Source: an uncultured Pseudomonas sp.
Lineage (GTDB): Bacteria > Pseudomonadota > Gammaproteobacteria > Pseudomonadales > Pseudomonadaceae
Direction of reading: 5' to 3'
Assembly (NCBI GenBank): GCA_946886875.1
Contig: CAMPJN010000044.1
Coordinates: 1-16,155, forward strand
Length of the DNA stretch: 16,155 nt
Made by a program: the position numbers and the translations under genes. Every line of letters starts with the position of its first letter. Positions within the stretch are counted from its first letter, which is position 1. The notes under the pieces are model-generated. The model searched no databases and had not been told where the DNA came from. It saw nothing but the letters and a program-made list of their open reading frames with translations. Below, piece after piece: positions 3-10,122 of the stretch.

Positions 3-260
3 GCGCTTATCCGCGAGGCATTGAAGAAGCAGCAACCCTGCCGGCAGATCATCCGCAACTATCGCAAGGACGGCAGCCTGTTCTGGAACGAGTTGTCGAT
101 CACTCCGGTATTCAATGCCGGCGACCAACTGACCTATTACATCGGCATCCAAAAGGACGTGACCGCCCAGGTGCTCGCCGAACAGCAGGTCAAGCACCTG
201 GAGGATGAATTGGCGGCATTGAAGGCCGAACTGGCGGCACTGCGCGCTAACCCGCAATAA
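3..260 (+). CDS. Short LOV blue-light photoreceptor, C-terminal part (5' end outside window)
   Basis: The open frame continues to the left edge, so the gene starts outside the window and the TTG at 21 is not its start. The 85 visible residues are the second half of a PAS/LOV domain. They include the segment FWNELSITPV, whose Asn contacts the flavin in LOV proteins, and the strand YYIGIQKDVT, whose Gln rearranges on photoexcitation. A short leucine-rich helix (KHLEDELAALKAELAALR) follows and then a stop, with no output domain. This is the layout of the short LOV proteins of Pseudomonas, and the sequence closely resembles P. putida PpSB1-LOV as I remember it. Those proteins bind FMN, dimerise through the terminal helices and act on partner regulators. 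The photoactive Cys (NCRFLQ motif) lies upstream of the window and cannot be checked. The nearby MerR-type regulator at 1062-2051 is the likely partner (inference). Confidence 0.85.
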   Translation, partial: ALIREALKKQQPCRQIIRNYRKDGSLFWNELSITPVFNAGDQLTYYIGIQKDVTAQVLAEQQVKHLEDELAALKAELAALRANPQ

Positions 261-361
261 GCGGTGAATACGGGCAGTTCGTCACGTAATTGCGCGTGAT
301 AGCTAACAAAGCACGAACTCTGTTGTCAGAATGGCTTACGCAACCTGCGCAGAATTCGACG

Positions 362-973
362 ATGCACGATCAACCGCTTCTCACCTCATCCGAACTGGAG
401 TTTCTCCGCCTGCTTCACCAGCAACCAGGCGGGCCGGATAACCTCCCCACGACCCATTTGCAGGTTGAAGCCGGCGTGCAGTTCGAGGGTTTGCTCGCCG
501 GCTGCGCGGCCAAGGAAAAACTGACCATCGAAGCGCATTTCGCCAACCAGCGCCTGACCTTCACCCCGGAGCTGGTGGAGGACGAGCAGCACGCACATCA
601 CCTGCGCCTGGGCACACCGCTGATTTTCGATGAAGGCGACACCCTGCGCGCCTGGCGTTCGCCATTACCGCAGCCCATTGCCCTGCAGCAACCGAATACG
701 GAGCAGAGCGATATGTGGCTGCATGAGCTGTCGATGAGCGGGCTATTGCTCGAGCAGCGCACTCCACGCGCCACGCCGCCCGAGCATCTGCGCATGACCT
801 TGCCACTTGCCGAGCACCCGCCCATCGCCATCAGCGGCAGTTTTGTGCGCAAGACCGAAGATGGCTTTTTGGCCTATCGCCTGGCGCCACTCGATGAACA
901 CAGCCAGGCGCGCCTGCGGCAATTCATCTATCAGCAACACCGCAATCACTATCCGCAAGCCCATCGCGCCTGA
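362..973 (+). CDS. PilZ-like protein of unknown function
   Basis: 203-residue cytoplasmic protein with no signal peptide or membrane segment. I chose ATG 362. The frame is open back to a TTG at 290, but those 24 extra codons have no visible ribosome site and an unremarkable sequence. The C-terminal half (from about residue 85) has the look of a PilZ beta-barrel. There is an arginine-rich stretch (LRAWRS), then ELSMSGLLL at residues 122-130, matching the second PilZ signature [D/N]xSxxG except for Glu in place of Asp/Asn. The N-terminal half resembles the preceding domain of two-domain PilZ proteins. PilZ domains bind cyclic di-GMP through RxxxR and [D/N]xSxxG. The degenerate motif leaves binding uncertain. 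The gene lies 101 bp downstream of the LOV gene in the same direction and converges on the regulator gene. The family assignment is moderate, and I do not know a specific function. Confidence 0.6.
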   Translation: MHDQPLLTSSELEFLRLLHQQPGGPDNLPTTHLQVEAGVQFEGLLAGCAAKEKLTIEAHFANQRLTFTPELVEDEQHAHHLRLGTPLIFDEGDTLRAWRSPLPQPIALQQPNTEQSDMWLHELSMSGLLLEQRTPRATPPEHLRMTLPLAEHPPIAISGSFVRKTEDGFLAYRLAPLDEHSQARLRQFIYQQHRNHYPQAHRA

Positions 974-1061
974 AGCGTACAGGTCACTCCCAAGCAAACA
1001 GCCATGCGTCAGCGCACCAGCCGAACGGGTGGGCAACGCTTGAACAGCAAAGGGGTGAGGA

Positions 1062-2051
1062 TCAGGTATCCAGGTGGCCGGCGAGAAACTGCTGCAAACG
1101 GCGCTGCATCAGTCGGCCTTCGTTGCCTAGACAAGCGATCGGCGAACCACTCAAGTACTCTTCCGCCAAATCGGCACCATCGCCAGCCAACAACAACGGG
1201 CAATCCAGCGCCAGCGCCAGCCGCTGCAATACCCGCGGCAGGTCGCCGCCAAGCGGCTGATTGGAAAACAGCACCAGGGCTTGCGGTCGCATCCGCTCGC
1301 ACACCAGGGTCAGCTCTTCGAGGGGCTGCCCCAAGCCGAGGAGGCTGATGGCGTTATCCGTACCGCTGAGTAGCAGCGCGGCGACCAGCAGCTCCAGTTC
1401 GCGGCAGTGCCCCGGTAATGCGGCCAATAACACCCGCTCCTCGCTCTGCGTCCTCACCAGTTGCAAGCGCTGCAGAATGCGCGCCCGCAAAAAGGTATCG
1501 AGGAACAGCCATTCGCTGGTCTGGCCGAACTCATCCTGGCGCAGCAGCAGTTCCTGCCACAGCGGCAACAGAATGTCCTGAAACACCACCGCCAGCGGGT
1601 AGCTGGAAAAGACCTGGCCGTATAAACGATCCAGCTTGACCTCATCGAAGGCACCAACGGCGTTGCGCAACTGCGCCTGCCATTCGGCCCATTCGTTGAT
1701 AGCGGTTTCTTGATAGACCGGAGCGCTGGCTGCTTTGATCGAATCGCTGCGGGCCAGGATCTTGCCCACCTTGCTGACCGCCACGCCGCGTTCGATCCAC
1801 GCCAGAATGCTGCGCACCGATTCGATATCGGCCTGGGAATAAAGACGATGACCGCTATCGGTGCGGGTCGGCTGGATCAGACCATAGCGTCGCTCCCAGG
1901 CCCGCAACGTCACGGGGTTGACCCCGGTCAGGCGGGAGACTTCGCGTATGGGGAACAACTCTTCCTGCTTGAGAGCACTCGAAACGAGAGACGAAGCACC
2001 AACGAGATTGGACATGGGCAGAGAGTTCACGGGGGCAAATGTTGTCGGCAT
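1062..2051 (-). CDS. MerR/LitR-family regulator lacking cobalamin ligands (class II LitR, PplR-like)
   Basis: 329 residues. Residues 33-103 form a MerR-type winged helix (IREVSRLTGVNPVTLRAWERRYGL, then SGHRLYS). The rest follows the CarH/LitR plan of a helical bundle and a Rossmann-like domain. In CarH the bundle has a Glu-His pair and the Rossmann part has a His ligand. Here the matching positions read SEW (Trp181) and PGHCRELE (Arg217), so neither expected histidine is present. That fits class II LitR, which does not sense light through adenosylcobalamin. In P. putida the PplR proteins of this class work with PpSB1-LOV to control light-induced genes (established knowledge, from memory). ATG 2051 gives the longest product. 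An in-frame ATG at 2015 (residue 13) is an alternative, and neither has a strong ribosome site. The gene is divergent from folM across a shared 354-bp control region and convergent with the PilZ-like gene. It is probably a repressor of the fol operon. Confidence 0.8.
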   Translation of the reverse strand: MPTTFAPVNSLPMSNLVGASSLVSSALKQEELFPIREVSRLTGVNPVTLRAWERRYGLIQPTRTDSGHRLYSQADIESVRSILAWIERGVAVSKVGKILARSDSIKAASAPVYQETAINEWAEWQAQLRNAVGAFDEVKLDRLYGQVFSSYPLAVVFQDILLPLWQELLLRQDEFGQTSEWLFLDTFLRARILQRLQLVRTQSEERVLLAALPGHCRELELLVAALLLSGTDNAISLLGLGQPLEELTLVCERMRPQALVLFSNQPLGGDLPRVLQRLALALDCPLLLAGDGADLAEEYLSGSPIACLGNEGRLMQRRLQQFLAGHLDT

Positions 2052-2175
2052 TGTAACTCAGCTTATAGCGCCACACCTTATACCGGGCCTATACACCAGG
2101 CATGAGGAAAGCAACTAAACGTCGAGCATCGAACCAACTACAGCTGCAGGATTTATGGGTACCAGCCAGACAAAC

Positions 2176-2202
2176 CTATACCAATAAATAAAATTTGTAT
2201 AG
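2176..2202. promoter_or_regulatory. Inverted repeat CTATAC/GTATAG, second candidate LitR/PplR site
   Basis: CTATAC at 2176-2181 and GTATAG at 2197-2202 are perfect inverted arms around a 15-bp A/T-only core except for its first base. Read as the operator form TRTACA...TGTAYA it gives TATACC, a 13-base gap, then TGTATA. That is one base longer than the 12-base spacing I remember. It is possibly the regulator's autoregulatory or auxiliary site. Confidence 0.4.
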
Positions 2203-2242
2203 CTTATGAACAGCTTTAAAAATTTTATCACTCTGCTAAAAA

Positions 2243-2277
2243 TCCATGAAAGCCAATGAAATCGGACACTTCATGGA
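2243..2277. repeat. 8-bp perfect inverted repeat TCCATGAA / TTCATGGA
   Basis: TCCATGAA at 2243-2250 is repeated in inverse at 2270-2277 with a 19-base spacer. It lies 31 bp upstream of the folM promoter elements. There is no T tract after it, so it does not look like a terminator. An activator or repressor site is possible. Confidence 0.35.
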
Positions 2278-2307
2278 AATAACCGCATATCCACACAGCG
2301 CCAATGG

Positions 2308-2334
2308 TTGTACAAGCCAATCGACTGGTATAAC
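2308..2334 (+). promoter_or_regulatory. folM-folE-folX promoter with overlapping LitR/PplR-type operator
   Basis: TGTACA at 2309-2314, 12 bases, then GGTATA at 2327-2332 matches the PplR1 consensus as I remember it (T(G/A)TACA-N12-TGTA(C/T)A) in 11 of 12 fixed positions. The same bases form a promoter: TTGTAC (2308-2313) as the -35, and an extended -10 TGGTATAAC with hexamer TATAAC at 2329-2334. The spacer is 15 bp, which is short. The right operator half lies on the -10, so bound regulator would block polymerase. A transcript would start near 2341, giving a leader of about 65 bases before folM. The overlap is visible in the sequence. The repressor identity is inferred. Confidence 0.6.
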
Positions 2335-2405
2335 TTTGCCGCACGGTCACCACCCATCAGCCACCTGATGCCTGAGCCACCCACACCAGCAGACCCGAGC
2401 CGATC

Positions 2406-3116
2406 ATGAGCGCAAGCGCAGCACCCATTTTAATTACCGGCGCCGGCCAGCGTGTCGGTTTGTACTGCGCCGAACGCCTGCTCGACGACGGTCATGCGCT
2501 GATCGTGACCTATCGTCGCGAGCGCGAAGCATTGCAACGCCTGCGCCAGCGTGGCGCGCTGACCCTGCAAGCAGATTTTTCCAGTGAAGCGGGCATCCTC
2601 GCCTTCATCGCCGAGCTGAAAAGCCACAGCGACAGCCTGCGTGCCATCGTCCACAACGCGTCCGACTGGCGCAGCGAAAGCCCAGGCACTGAAGCAGCGG
2701 ACTTTCAACAGCTGTTCAACGTGCACATGCTCGCGCCTTATCTGATCAACCTGCATTGCGCCGAGCTGCTGCAGCGCTCGACGCCCGCCGACATTGTGCA
2801 TATCAGCGACGATGTGGTGCGCAAAGGCAGCGCCAAGCATCCGGCGTATTGCGCCAGCAAAGCCGGCCTGGACAGCCTGACCCTGTCGTTCGCCAGCAAA
2901 TTTGCGCCAACTATCAAGGTCAACGGCATCGCTCCCGCACTGATCATGTTCAACCAGCAGGACGACAGCCAATACCGGCAGAAGACCCTGGCCAAGTCCG
3001 CGCTGGGCATAGAGCCCGGTGCCCAGGTGATTTACCAAAGCCTGCGCTATTTACTGGATAACCCCTACGTAACCGGCACCACCCTTACCGTCAACGGCGG
3101 CCGCCATCTCAAGTAG
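2406..3116 (+). CDS. folM: Dihydromonapterin reductase FolM (short-chain dehydrogenase)
   Basis: 236 residues, the usual FolM length. It has the Rossmann NADPH motif TGAGQRVG at residues 11-18, HNAS at 83-86, Ser134 in HISDD, the catalytic YCASK (Tyr148, Lys152) and the terminal VNGGRHLK typical of FolM. The enzyme reduces 7,8-dihydromonapterin to tetrahydromonapterin with NADPH, with weak activity on dihydrofolate. Tetrahydromonapterin serves phenylalanine hydroxylase in Pseudomonas (family knowledge). It is the first gene of the folM-folE-folX operon, 22 bp before folE, behind the promoter at 2308-2334. The start at ATG 2406 puts the NADPH motif at the expected distance. Its ribosome site is weak. 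Confidence 0.9.
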
Positions 3117-3138
3117 CGCCTGCCGCGAGGATCGAACG

Positions 3139-3699
3139 ATGAACCAACAACTGCCCAATCATTACCGGGAGATCCTTCTTGGCGTCGGCGAAAACCCGGA
3201 GCGCGAGGGCTTGCTCGATACCCCTCAGCGTGCGGCCAAAGCCATGCAGTACCTTTGCCACGGCTACCAGAAGAGCCTGGAAGAGGTGGTCAACGGCGCG
3301 CTTTTCGCCTCCGATAACGACGAGATGGTGATCGTCAAGGACATCGAGCTGTATTCGCTATGCGAGCATCACCTGCTGCCTTTTATCGGCAAGGCGCACG
3401 TCGCCTATATCCCGACCGGGAGAGTGCTGGGCCTGTCGAAGGTGGCGCGCATCGTCGATATGTATGCGCGGCGCCTGCAGATTCAGGAGAACCTCACACG
3501 GCAGATCGCCGATGCGATCCAGAGCGTTACCAACGCAGCCGGCGTGGCGGTGGTGATCGAAGCCAAACACATGTGCATGATGATGCGCGGGGTCGAGAAG
3601 CAGAATTCGGTGATGAATACCTCGGTGATGCTTGGCGCCTTCCGCGAGTCCTGCAACACTCGCCTGGAATTTTTGCAATTGATTGGACGGAGCAAGTAA
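3139..3699 (+). CDS. folE: GTP cyclohydrolase I FolE
   Basis: 186 residues with all hallmarks of type IA GTP cyclohydrolase. The zinc ligands are Cys75 and His78 in [10 protein letters not shown] and Cys146 in KHMCMMMRG, with His144 beside the third. [17 protein letters not shown] lies at 98-114 and the substrate-contact segment [13 protein letters not shown] follows. It converts GTP to 7,8-dihydroneopterin triphosphate, the entry to all pterins. ATG 3139 follows a GAGG ribosome site at 3127-3130. It lies 22 bp after folM and 2 bp before folX. Pseudomonas genomes usually hold a second folE copy for general folate synthesis. This operon-linked copy matches the light-induced folE reported in P. 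putida (from memory), so it is probably the inducible paralogue. Confidence 0.95.
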
Positions 3700-3701
3700 G
3701 C

Positions 3702-4076
3702 ATGCCGCGACTGGAGCCAGGAATGGCGCGGATTCGGGTCAAGGATCTGCGCCTGCGCACCTTCATTGGGATCAAAGAAGAAGAGATCAACAACAAGCAG
3801 GATGTGCTGATCAACCTGACCATCCTCTACCCCGCGGTGGAAGCTGTGCGCGATAACGATATCGACCACGCGCTGAACTACCGCACCATCACCAAGGCGA
3901 TCATCCAGCATGTCGAAGGCAATCGCTTCGCCCTGCTCGAACGTCTGACCCAGGAAATTCTCGACCTGGTGATGGCCAATCAGGCGGTACGTTACGCCGA
4001 GGTGGAAGTCGACAAACCCCACGCCCTGCGCTTCGCCGAGTCGGTATCGATCACCCTGGCCGGGCACCGCGACTGA
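3702..4076 (+). CDS. folX: Dihydroneopterin triphosphate 2'-epimerase FolX
   Basis: 124 residues, close to E. coli FolX (120). It shares the segment [15 protein letters not shown], the ALNYRT...IIQHVE stretch, catalytic-type Glu80 ([11 protein letters not shown]) and Lys105 in [12 protein letters not shown]. The enzyme epimerises dihydroneopterin triphosphate to dihydromonapterin triphosphate, supplying FolM after dephosphorylation. ATG 3702 lies 2 bp after the folE stop, with GGAG at 3689-3692. An in-frame ATG at 3723 is a weaker alternative that still keeps the whole domain. FolB (neopterin aldolase) is the close relative, but the sequence follows FolX more closely. The operon therefore encodes three of the steps from GTP to tetrahydromonapterin. 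Confidence 0.93.
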
Positions 4077-5365: not shown

Positions 5366-5686
5366 ATGACCGAGCAAGAACGCCTTGAATTGGAAGCCGC
5401 CGCCTTCCGCAGCCTGCTGCAGCACCTGCGCAGCCGCCCAGACGTCCAGAATATCGACATGATGAACCTGGCCGGTTTCTGCCGTAATTGCCTGTCCAAA
5501 TGGTTCAAAGCCGCCGCCGACGACATCGGCGTGGCGGTGACCCCGGAGCAGGCCCGCGAGGAGATCTACGGCATGCCCTACAGCGAATGGAAAAACAAAT
5601 ACCAGAAGGAAGCCAGCCCCGAGCAGCAGGCCGCCTTCAGCAAGCAAACCGGCAAAGACCAGAGCGACAAAGGCGGCCAGGCATGA
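5366..5686 (+). CDS. DUF1244 family protein
   Basis: 106 residues, soluble and charged. The conserved core GFCRNCLSKWF (Cys39, Cys42), followed by ADDIGV and EEIYGMPYSEWKNKYQ, identifies the DUF1244 family, widespread in proteobacteria and without a known function. The two cysteines in a CxxC spacing could bind metal or be redox active (inference). The frame is open further upstream, but ATG 5366 gives the family's usual N-terminus. The stop overlaps the next gene's start (ATGA at 5683-5686), so the two are translationally coupled and probably work together. Confidence 0.88.
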   Translation: MTEQERLELEAAAFRSLLQHLRSRPDVQNIDMMNLAGFCRNCLSKWFKAAADDIGVAVTPEQAREEIYGMPYSEWKNKYQKEASPEQQAAFSKQTGKDQSDKGGQA

Positions 5687-6024
5687 CCGCGCTCGGTGCT
5701 TTTCGCGCGCGCCTGCATAGCGACCAGTTCACCTTTGCCGAAACCCTGGCCTTTATCGCCGAGCACTACGACTACAGCCAGAGCGCCTTCGACAACGGCG
5801 CCGTGAGCAATGCCGCGGGGCAGAACGAAGGCTCGTGCAAGACCCTGGGCCTGGCGTTGCTCGAAGGCCTGAGCCTGGAAGAGACCCTACGCTGCTTCGG
5901 CGAGCACTACCGCAGCGTGCTGGCCAGCCCGCATGGCGACGACCACGGCAATATCCGCGCACTGATGAGCACCGGCCTGGCCGGGGTACGTTTCGAGCAA
6001 GCGCCGCTGACCCGCAAAGCCTGA
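5683..6024 (+). CDS. HopJ family protein
   Basis: 113 residues matching the HopJ family (FAETLAFIAEHYDYSQSAFDNG, NEGSCKTLGLALLE, FGEHYRSVLASPHGDDHGNIRALMSTGL). It is named after a P. syringae protein once listed as a type III effector. The family also occurs widely in non-pathogens and here sits in a housekeeping context with no secretion genes nearby, so an effector role is unlikely (inference). It starts inside the stop codon of the DUF1244 gene (ATGA). Its biochemical role is unknown. Confidence 0.88.
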   Translation: MTALGAFRARLHSDQFTFAETLAFIAEHYDYSQSAFDNGAVSNAAGQNEGSCKTLGLALLEGLSLEETLRCFGEHYRSVLASPHGDDHGNIRALMSTGLAGVRFEQAPLTRKA

Positions 6025-8100: not shown

Positions 8101-8130
8101 GCTGCTGTCGCTTTCTTACAGTTGATCGGC

Positions 8131-10122
8131 ATGACTCTGCGTAAACGCCTGTTCTGGCTGTTCCTCCCGTTGCTCGCGCTTACTCTGCTGATCGTCAACG
8201 GTCTGTCGGAGCGTATCCTGCTGACGCGCTTCGACAACGAAGACCGCAGCCGATTGCTGATCCATACCGAACAAGTGCGCGCCGTGCTCGGCCAGAGCCT
8301 GCAACGCAGCATGATCCTGTCGCGCAGCTACGCCTGGTGGGACGACAGCTACAACTTCGTCAAGCAGGGCCAGCCGCCGGACTTCGCCCAGCGCAACCTC
8401 GACGCCACCCGCCTGGCCAACCTGGATTTCGACTTCATGATGTTTCTCGACAGCCAGGATCGCGTGGTGGCAGAGCAATGGGTGTTGCCGGACTTCACCG
8501 ATATGCGACCGGTTGGCCTGGATCAACCGCGCAGCCAGGCCAGCCTGCGTGCCGACATTCTCAGCCGCAGCCGCGCCACCGGTAGCCTGGAGCATGCGAG
8601 CAACCCGACCAGCCTGTCCGGGCAAATCCTCTTGATCCAGGGCGTACCGCTGTTGCTGGTCAGCCATGCGATAAGCAATAGCCAGGGCAATGCCGAACCT
8701 GCCGGCACCCTGCTACTCGGCAATTTTCTCGACGGCCAGCGCCTCGATAACCTGCAACGCCAGCTCAATGCCCGCCTCAGCCTGCACCCGCCCGGCGCCG
8801 CACAAAGCACCTGGAAGGTGCTCGACACCAGCCAGTACGCCCCCGATATGCACCTGAGTCGGAGCCCACTACGCTGGCTGGACGAAAAAAACATGCAGGT
8901 CGAACTGCTGCTGAGCAGCGCCACTGGCGAGCCGGCCTTGCGCCTACAGATCACCAAGGAGCGCACCCTCTACCAGCAGGGCCGTCAGGCCATCCGTTAC
9001 TTTCTCGCGGTCGCCCTGCTGGTCGCCTTTGCCGCCATGCTGGTGATCTACCTGAGCCTGGAGTTCTCGGTGTTACGGCGCATCCAACGCATCCAGCGAG
9101 AAGTCTCGTTGATCGGTCACGATGCCTCCTTGCCGCGCCTGACCGACCTCGGCCGCGATGAGATCGGGCAGCTGAGCGGCGCGCTCAATAATATGCTTGA
9201 GCGCCTGGAGCAGAGTGAAGCCCGCGACCGAGCGATCCTCGATTCCATCCAGGATGGTTATTTCGAGATCAACGCCAGCGGCGTCATTCTCACGGTCAAC
9301 CGGGCGCTGGAACAGTTGCTCGGTTACCCGCAGGGACAGCTGCTCGGGTGCTCCTTCGAGGAAGTCCTCAGCGACGACGAAATCGCCCGTGCGCGCAAGC
9401 AGTTCGCCCAGGGGCGCCATTCGCGCGATAAAAACACCAGCACCTTCGCCGCCGCATTCAAACGCCGCGATGGCAGTCTGGCCCATTTCGAAACCCGTTT
9501 TTCCCTGGTCGAGGACGCCCATGGCGAGTTCGCCGGTTACCGCGGCATCCTGCGTGACATCAGCGAACAGGTGGCCTACCAGAACAGCTTGCTGGACATG
9601 GCCTACCGTGACACCCTGACCGACCTGGGCAACCGCAAGGCCTTCGCCGAACAGCTGGCCAATGCTCTGCAGCAGGCGCAACGGCAACACAATCAACTGG
9701 CGCTGCTGTACCTGGATCTGGATCGTTTCAAGGAGGTCAACGACCGCTTCGGCCATGACGTCGGCGATGCCTTGCTGATGGCGCTCGCCGAGCGTATGCG
9801 CAACACCCTGCGCCACCCGGACCGGCTGTATCGCATCGGCGGAGACGAATTCACCCTGCTGATGCCCAATACCCATATGGAAGCGGCGCAGAAGCTGGCC
9901 GAACGTTTGCTGACGGCGCTAAACAAACCGGTGATCCTCGACAATACCGCCATCGACTTCGTCACCCCGAGCATCGGCATCGCCCTCTACCCCGAGCATG
10001 CGCTGAACGCCCAGGACCTGATCAAAGCCGCCGACAGCGCCATGTACCAGGCCAAACAGCAGCGCAACTGCGCCCAGCTGTACAACTCCGACACGCCGCT
10101 ACGGCTCGACCAGCGTGGCTGA
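8131..10122 (+). CDS. Membrane diguanylate cyclase: CHASE4-HAMP-PAS-GGDEF
   Basis: 663 residues. First membrane helix at about 6-24. Periplasmic CHASE4 sensor domain up to about residue 285, with the signature YAWWDDSYNFV. Second helix at about 289-311, then HAMP (to about 364), PAS (about 366-485, ending YRGILRDISEQ) and GGDEF (about 490-655). The active-site GGDEF is intact at 570-574. The product-inhibition site RxxD is present as RHPD at 561-564, exactly five residues before it. There is no EAL domain, so it should make cyclic di-GMP from two GTP in response to an unknown periplasmic ligand. ATG 8131 was chosen because the membrane helix follows at once. The frame is open back to 7942. 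It is divergent from trxB and 163 bp upstream of cysZ, and resembles PA0847 of P. aeruginosa as I remember it. Confidence 0.92.
   Translation: MTLRKRLFWLFLPLLALTLLIVNGLSERILLTRFDNEDRSRLLIHTEQVRAVLGQSLQRSMILSRSYAWWDDSYNFVKQGQPPDFAQRNLDATRLANLDFDFMMFLDSQDRVVAEQWVLPDFTDMRPVGLDQPRSQASLRADILSRSRATGSLEHASNPTSLSGQILLIQGVPLLLVSHAISNSQGNAEPAGTLLLGNFLDGQRLDNLQRQLNARLSLHPPGAAQSTWKVLDTSQYAPDMHLSRSPLRWLDEKNMQVELLLSSATGEPALRLQITKERTLYQQGRQAIRYFLAVALLVAFAAMLVIYLSLEFSVLRRIQRIQREVSLIGHDASLPRLTDLGRDEIGQLSGALNNMLERLEQSEARDRAILDSIQDGYFEINASGVILTVNRALEQLLGYPQGQLLGCSFEEVLSDDEIARARKQFAQGRHSRDKNTSTFAAAFKRRDGSLAHFETRFSLVEDAHGEFAGYRGILRDISEQVAYQNSLLDMAYRDTLTDLGNRKAFAEQLANALQQAQRQHNQLALLYLDLDRFKEVNDRFGHDVGDALLMALAERMRNTLRHPDRLYRIGGDEFTLLMPNTHMEAAQKLAERLLTALNKPVILDNTAIDFVTPSIGIALYPEHALNAQDLIKAADSAMYQAKQQRNCAQLYNSDTPLRLDQRG

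What the first reader, a model, noticed from the sequence alone, without database searches (positions are those of the whole stretch)
3..4076. Blue-light module: short LOV protein, PilZ-like protein, B12-less LitR and a pterin operon in one locus
The sequence shows a short LOV C-terminus, a MerR/LitR regulator without cobalamin ligands and a divergent folM-folE-folX operon. In P. putida the LOV protein and class II LitR proteins together control light-induced genes including folE (from memory). Here sensor, regulator and target are in one 4-kb block, with a PilZ-like protein between sensor and regulator that could tie in cyclic di-GMP.
Basis: partly seen in the sequence, partly recalled or inferred. 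Interest (0 to 1): 0.7.

Follow-up and report, generated by a model that had tools for sequence, protein, structure and literature searches.

The report
Known Pseudomonas blue-light pterin switch
This stretch is another copy of a blue-light switch already worked out in Pseudomonas mendocina, in which a light-sensing protein lifts a repressor off a pterin-making operon; the one little-explored part is a PilZ-fold protein that travels more with the pterin genes than with the light sensor.

Summary
In detail: C-terminal half of a short LOV protein, a PilZ-fold protein, a B12-less class II LitR and a divergent folM-folE-folX operon. It is a new copy of a published locus. In P. mendocina (Maruyama 2022, PMC9758184) the same genes lie together, illuminated LOV inhibits the LitR protein PmlR2, PmlR2 binds the folM promoter, and folM/folE rise 1.6-3.3-fold in light. 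The window has the same operator form, TGTACA-N12-GGTATA, 97 nt before folM, the only match with up to 2 mismatches in 16 kb. The order holds in 38 of 44 loci found through the PilZ gene.

Beyond that paper: the gene between LOV and LitR has a PilZ fold but lacks the canonical c-di-GMP motifs. In 198 related genomes it lies near folM in 65 of 74 carriers and near LOV in 35 of 74; beside folM without LitR, folE and operator are missing (0 of 40). It looks like a companion of the pterin genes, not a light relay, but few of these changes are independent. The photoactive Cys lies outside the window.

The parts
3..260 (+). C-terminal 85 aa of a short LOV blue-light photoreceptor (5' part lies outside the window; photoactive Cys not visible)
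   Evidence: closest listed relative P0112, 90% over 80 aa, has the CRFL motif
362..973 (+). PilZ-fold protein, 203 aa (ATG 362; the ORF listing begins at TTG 290)
1062..2051 (-). Class II LitR/CarH-family MerR regulator (PmlR2-like, B12 ligands missing); start could also be the internal ATG at residue 13
   Evidence: 71-72% identical to P. mendocina loci L026/L030
2309..2332 (+). LitR operator TGTACA-N12-GGTATA overlapping a putative extended -10 (TGGTATAAC), 97 nt upstream of folM ATG
   Evidence: only site with up to 2 mismatches in 16 kb; flanks conserved with other loci; same sequence form reported upstream of P. mendocina folM
2406..3116 (+). folM, dihydromonapterin reductase (TGX3RXG and YX3K present)
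   Evidence: NF005066 358.8 bits, cut-off 249; motifs as described in PMC13259868, read by eye from the translation
3139..3699 (+). folE, GTP cyclohydrolase I
   Evidence: TIGR00063 254 bits, cut-off 181.6
3702..4076 (+). folX, dihydroneopterin triphosphate 2'-epimerase (start 3702 read by eye; alternative start 3723)
   Evidence: NF008418 201.9 bits, cut-off 152 (scanned from 3711)

Best explanation
A pmlR2-type blue-light switch. In the dark the class II LitR sits on the operator at 2309-2332, which overlaps the putative folM promoter, and holds down folM-folE-folX. Blue light forms the Cys-FMN adduct in the short LOV protein, which then binds the LitR N-terminal domain and inhibits its DNA binding, so GTP cyclohydrolase I, the epimerase and the reductase make more (tetrahydro)monapterin. 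Shown in this window: genes, order, operator sequence. Shown in P. mendocina by others: light-dependent LOV-LitR binding, anti-repression, PmlR2 binding to the folM promoter, modest induction. Inferred for the window: the same chemistry and direction, and the rise in monapterin. The PilZ-fold protein is most likely an accessory of the monapterin genes (inferred from gene order), not a link in the light relay.
For: Same genes as the P. mendocina pmlR2 region, and the same operator form, reported there 95 bp upstream of folM and 97 nt here. In P. mendocina folM rises 2.4-2.5x and folE 1.6-3.3x in light, and PmlR2 gel-shifts the folM promoter; anti-repression in vitro. Site with up to 2 mismatches 82-119 nt before folM in 38 of 38 LOV+LitR loci (33 of them at 1 mismatch) and 0 of 4 loci without. 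In all fetched LitR-folM intervals, 41 of 56 hold a site with at most 1 mismatch against 0.23 expected from mononucleotide shuffles. LOV and LitR are adjacent in 121 of 136 LOV-bearing genomes of a 198-genome sample. PilZ near folM in 65 of 74 carriers, near LOV in 35 of 74.
Against: The photoactive Cys cannot be read in this window. 8 of 56 loci with LitR beside folM have no site with up to 2 mismatches within 300 nt of folM, so direct control is not universal. Induction of fol genes in P. mendocina is weak beside phrB and ufaM (25-33x), so folM-E-X may be a side target; pmlR2 and LOV themselves hardly respond to light. The P. mendocina work has loose ends: no in vivo mutants could be made, the E. 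coli two-hybrid signal was the same in dark and light, and in gel shifts the illuminated LOV-PmlR2 complex stayed on DNA, unlike in BIAcore. LitR, folE and operator covary, but only 3 well-supported independent pairs exist, too few for significance.
Confidence: 0.85

Rival explanations
1. The PilZ-like protein is a working part of the light relay (LOV-PilZ-LitR), feeding c-di-GMP into the switch.
For: It lies between LOV and LitR in 38 of 44 loci found with it, and the gene cluster pmlR2-PME15565-pmSB-LOV is called conserved in Pseudomonas. R96, W98, R99, R163 and Y172 are invariant in 90 of 90, so it is under selection.
Against: 59 of 121 genomes with adjacent LOV and LitR have no such gene at E<=0.001 (at most 16 candidates scored per genome). 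In 36 genomes it sits by folM without LOV nearby. The in vitro switch works without it. First Arg of RxxxR present in 3 of 90; D at the [DN]xSxxG position in 2 of 90, N in none.
Confidence: 0.12
2. The PilZ-like gene is only a syntenic neighbour of folM and LOV with an unrelated job (for example surface or motility control), kept by inheritance of gene order.
For: On the FolM tree few independent changes are seen (4 changes for PilZ). In 6 genomes it stays near LOV and not near a listed folM, and in 3 it is near neither.
Against: It is directly upstream of and co-oriented with folM, with gaps of 33-214 nt, in 35 of 39 PilZ+folM loci that lack LOV/LitR (in one of the 35, L083, the 'FolM' is only a 42% relative), an operon-like arrangement.
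Confidence: 0.35
3. The LitR here is a cobalamin photoreceptor itself and the neighbouring LOV is incidental.
For: Sequence relationship to CarH (5c8d, E 3.7e-20).
Against: No full B12-binding domain match, B12-binding_2 only at 0.068; the two CarH histidines are W and R; P. putida homologues need no B12 (stated).
Confidence: 0.02

Closest known systems
P. mendocina NBRC 14162 pmlR2 region (PmSB-LOV, PME15565, PmlR2, PME15555, folM-folE-folX), Maruyama 2022, PMC9758184
   Same: Same genes, B12-less LitR, short LOV, fol operon, operator form and distance. P. mendocina loci L026/L030 show the window's order and orientation; the paper's own figure is not held.
   Different: The window lacks the ABM-domain gene that lies between LitR and folM in L026 (presumably PME15555, inferred) and the second site near -250 seen in 17 of 18 loci of that group (L025-L042). 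Its PilZ protein is only 31-33% identical to those of L026/L030. The paper never uses the word PilZ in its main text; public databases already label several relatives 'PilZ domain-containing protein'.
P. putida KT2440 PplR1-3 / PpSB1- and PpSB2-LOV system
   Same: Class II LitR plus short LOV control light-induced genes including folE (stated in the PMC9758184 introduction; the original paper was not seen).
   Different: Three LitR paralogues with 19 light-inducible genes; whether the genes sit in one block there was not examined here.
Agrobacterium PruA-PruR-DcpA pterin to c-di-GMP pathway (review PMC13259868, passages seen)
   Same: A FolM-type pteridine reductase product feeds c-di-GMP control; a precedent for a pterin/c-di-GMP link.
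   Different: Uses a periplasmic pterin-binding protein and a DcpA enzyme; PilZ is not mentioned in the text. No PruR or DcpA gene was looked for here.
YcgR/MrkH/MapZ-type PilZ proteins
   Different: RxxxR and [DN]xSxxG motifs replaced by RxWR and mostly ExSxxG (canonical motifs recalled); N-terminal half modelled poorly.

Membership tests
Class II LitR (B12-less LitR/CarH) | N-terminal MerR HTH | tested here: met
   PF13411 5.1e-16
Class II LitR (B12-less LitR/CarH) | Cobalamin-binding residues lost, only a remnant 4-helix domain | tested here: met
   No B12-binding domain, B12-binding_2 E 0.068; W131/H142/H177 of CarH align to L/W/R
Class II LitR (B12-less LitR/CarH) | Binds T(G/A)TACA-N12-TGTA(C/T)A | not testable with these tools
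   A site with one mismatch exists before folM; binding not shown for this protein
Short LOV photoreceptor (PpSB/PmSB type) | LOV core with C-terminal J-alpha helix and no effector domain | tested here: inconclusive
   C-terminal half aligns to 7r5n over residues 2-83 of 85 and the frame stops at 260; N-terminal half is outside the window
Short LOV photoreceptor (PpSB/PmSB type) | Adduct-forming Cys | not testable with these tools
   Outside the window; CRFL kept in 38 of 38 syntenic loci and 120 of 120 listed homologues
Tetrahydromonapterin operon folM-folE-folX | Three enzymes above curated cut-offs, co-oriented and adjacent | tested here: met
   coordinates
c-di-GMP-binding PilZ domain | PilZ fold | tested here: met
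c-di-GMP-binding PilZ domain | RxxxR motif | tested here: not met
   window residue 95 is L; Arg there in 3 of 90; instead R96-x-W-R99 in 90 of 90
c-di-GMP-binding PilZ domain | [DN]xSxxG motif | tested here: not met
   window has ExSxxG; D in 2 of 90, E in 73 of 90
pmlR2-type light locus | LOV, LitR and fol operon together with operator before folM | tested here: met

The most novel reading that the evidence does not exclude
The PilZ-fold protein is an uncharacterised member of the Pseudomonas-family monapterin pathway that binds c-di-GMP through a changed motif (RxWR...ExSxxG) or binds a pterin. Where it shares a locus with LOV-LitR it joins light, pterin level and c-di-GMP output, a Pseudomonas counterpart of the Agrobacterium pterin to c-di-GMP route.
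Probability: 0.12. Interest if true: 0.6.

Novelty: new member of a known kind. Interest (0 to 1): 0.3.

Why it matters
It shows that the one-block blue-light/pterin switch of P. mendocina recurs in many Pseudomonas-family genomes, mostly with its operator, so light control of GTP cyclohydrolase I can be tested in many strains. It also points to a conserved PilZ-fold gene whose usual neighbour is folM more than LOV. In the library searched I saw no paper on a PilZ-LOV or PilZ-folM link in Pseudomonas (listings only), though databases already name some of these proteins PilZ.

Tried and rejected
LOV-PilZ as a fixed pair: rejected by the family-wide counts. Cobalamin sensing by this LitR: rejected. 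A strict rule that folE and operator come and go with LitR: the raw table looks clean (folE just behind folM in 55 of 56 LitR loci, and in the 56th, L061, the two overlap; 0 of 40 PilZ-folM loci without LitR). But the FolM tree gives only 3 well-supported independent pairs, sign test not significant, and 5 of 7 loci with neither LitR nor PilZ beside folM still have folE, 3 of them with an operator. Sequence search of the PilZ family against solved structures found nothing at E up to 1; only the fold comparison worked. Pfam PilZ falls below cut-off in one protein of the folM-only type (L101, E 0.027) and is absent in L022 (2 of the folM-only type scanned), so the family name there rests on alignment to members above cut-off. 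At most 16 (PilZ), 19 (LOV), 11 (LitR) and 14 (FolM) candidates were scored per genome, so absences are soft. The FolM match list was cut off (coordinates for 149 of 191 genomes with a match), so some folM neighbours are missed; for example G170 (L083) has a 42% FolM relative next to PilZ, and in G017, G098 and G105 (L081, L058, L082) folM is some 11-14 kb from PilZ.
Full report
WHAT IS THERE. Positions 3-4076 hold, in order: the last 85 aa of a short LOV protein (+), a 203-aa PilZ-fold protein (+), a LitR-type MerR regulator (-), and folM, folE, folX (+). The best solved relatives of the LOV end are 'sensory box' proteins (7r5n, 7a6p). FolM, FolE and FolX each pass NCBIfam equivalog cut-offs. 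LitR has a good MerR domain and no usable B12 domain; against the CarH of 5c8d the positions of W131, H142 and H177 hold L, W and R (numbering and roles recalled). The PilZ frame should start at ATG 362, where the aligned homologues start. The Cys that makes the LOV adduct lies outside the window. The CRFL motif is present in 38 of 38 loci with the same layout and in the 120 listed of 3,374 LOV homologues, the nearest being 90% identical over 80 aa.

PRIOR ART. Maruyama et al. 2022 (PMC9758184; outline with abstract, first three of eight parts of the text and the Discussion read; word search; figures and supplements not seen) describe this locus in P. mendocina. The pmlR2 region holds PmSB-LOV, PME15565, PmlR2, PME15555 and folM-folE-folX, and the cluster pmlR2-PME15565-pmSB-LOV is called conserved in Pseudomonas. 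Light raises folM 2.4-2.5-fold and folE 1.6-3.3-fold, while pmlR2 (1.4-1.5) and LOV (0.9-1.1) hardly change, and PmlR2 gel-shifts the folM promoter. Illuminated LOV binds the PmlR2 N-terminal domain and inhibits DNA binding and repression in vitro. Loose ends told there: no mutants could be made, two-hybrid signal in dark and light alike, gel shift and BIAcore disagree on whether the complex leaves DNA. The authors note TGTACA-N12-GGTATA 95 bp upstream of folM. The word PilZ does not occur in the main text.

THE OPERATOR. The window carries that same form at 2309-2332, 97 nt before the folM ATG. It is the only match with up to 2 mismatches to T(G/A)TACA-N12-TGTA(C/T)A in 16,155 bases. In 38 of 38 loci with LOV and LitR a site lies 82-119 nt before folM (1 mismatch in 33, 2 in 5); 0 of 4 loci without LOV/LitR have one. 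In 56 LitR-folM intervals, 41 have a site with at most 1 mismatch against 0.23 expected from mononucleotide shuffles. A search of 143 loci and the window with the core TGTACA...TG[GC]TATA found 51 places; around this core, which I imposed, the flanks agree as well: AtGGT before it and aCTTT after it. It reads as a -35-like element and an extended -10 covered by the operator (inference; the plain sigma-70 scan did not report it). Against: 8 of 56 loci with LitR beside folM have no site with up to 2 mismatches within 300 nt.

CONSERVATION OF ORDER. A scan of the genome collection with an alignment of the PilZ family returned 44 loci. In 38 the order LOV, PilZ, LitR (reversed), folM, folE is kept (folX seen in 36; two run off the fetched DNA). 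In 4 (L021-L024) PilZ is followed by folM and folX without LOV, LitR or folE, with an ABM-like frame between PilZ and folM in the two inspected (L021, L022). The last 2 are distant. Between LitR and folM some lineages carry an ABM-domain or a DCC1-like gene; the window has neither.

THE PILZ GENE. In a 198-genome sample of the family of L007's genome, the PilZ-like gene is in 74 (E<=0.001), a close LOV in 136 (E<=1e-45), a close LitR in 127 (E<=1e-60) and a FolM-like protein in 191 (E<=1e-50, coordinates listed for 149). By coordinates within 8 kb, LOV and LitR are adjacent in 121 of 136. PilZ is near both LOV and folM in 29, near folM only in 36, near LOV only in 6, near neither in 3. So folM is its commoner neighbour (65 of 74 against 35 of 74), and 59 of the 121 LOV-LitR genomes lack it. 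All 36 folM-only loci were fetched: PilZ lies upstream of folM on the same strand, folX follows, folE is missing; in 34 of the 36 the gap is 33-214 nt, in two an ABM-type gene intervenes; no site with up to 2 mismatches lies within 400 nt before their folM. Of 103 loci with a true FolM, those with PilZ but no LitR nearby have folE in 0 of 40 and an operator in 0 of 40; those with LitR nearby have folE in 55 of 56, and in the 56th (L061) folE overlaps folM. In 9 of the 20 split genomes whose separate LOV-LitR locus I fetched (20 of 30 such genomes), that locus carries its own folE-folX with an operator upstream, while PilZ stays with folM-folX elsewhere; in the other 11 of 20 the fetched LOV-LitR stretch has no folE. 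These loci are related: on a FolM tree of 104 rows LitR changes 8 times, folE 6, operator 9, PilZ 4, with only 3 well-supported independent pairs for LitR, so the association is suggestive and not statistically shown.

READING. The window is a further copy of the pmlR2-type blue-light switch on the monapterin operon. The PilZ protein is best filed as an uncharacterised companion of the monapterin genes. A pterin to c-di-GMP route exists in Agrobacterium (PMC13259868, passages seen), which makes a c-di-GMP or pterin role worth a binding test, but nothing here shows it. Papers searched for a PilZ-LOV or PilZ-folM link: 12 listed, none on this locus by title or start of abstract; 0 found; 1 found, the review. 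Since databases name several relatives PilZ, the name itself is not new.

Noticed in passing
window 8128-10122 (+): CHASE4-HAMP-PAS-GGDEF diguanylate cyclase about 4 kb downstream of the fol operon, beside a thioredoxin-reductase-like gene; a possible c-di-GMP source, link to the PilZ gene untested.
   Followed up: no
window 5683-6024 (+): Small protein matching Pfam HopJ (3.5e-39) directly after a DUF1244 gene; a family name only. A similar pair of frames lies downstream of folX in L021 (seen by eye).
   Followed up: no
L104-L111, L115: In 9 of 20 fetched split genomes the LOV-LitR locus holds LitR, a DCC1-like gene, folE, folX and LOV with a site (1 mismatch) between the DCC1-like gene and folE, giving a second folX copy besides the one after folM elsewhere.
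   Followed up: partly
L009 9795-10220 and L026 7953-8519: A DCC1-like thiol-disulfide oxidoreductase (L009) or an ABM-domain protein (L026) lies between LitR and folM, and relatives of one or the other do so in other fetched loci; function in this context unknown.
   Followed up: no
L025-L042, about 250 nt before folM: A second class II LitR-type site (mostly TGTACA...CGTACA, at most 1 mismatch) in 17 of 18 loci of the P. mendocina-type group, absent in the window.
   Followed up: partly
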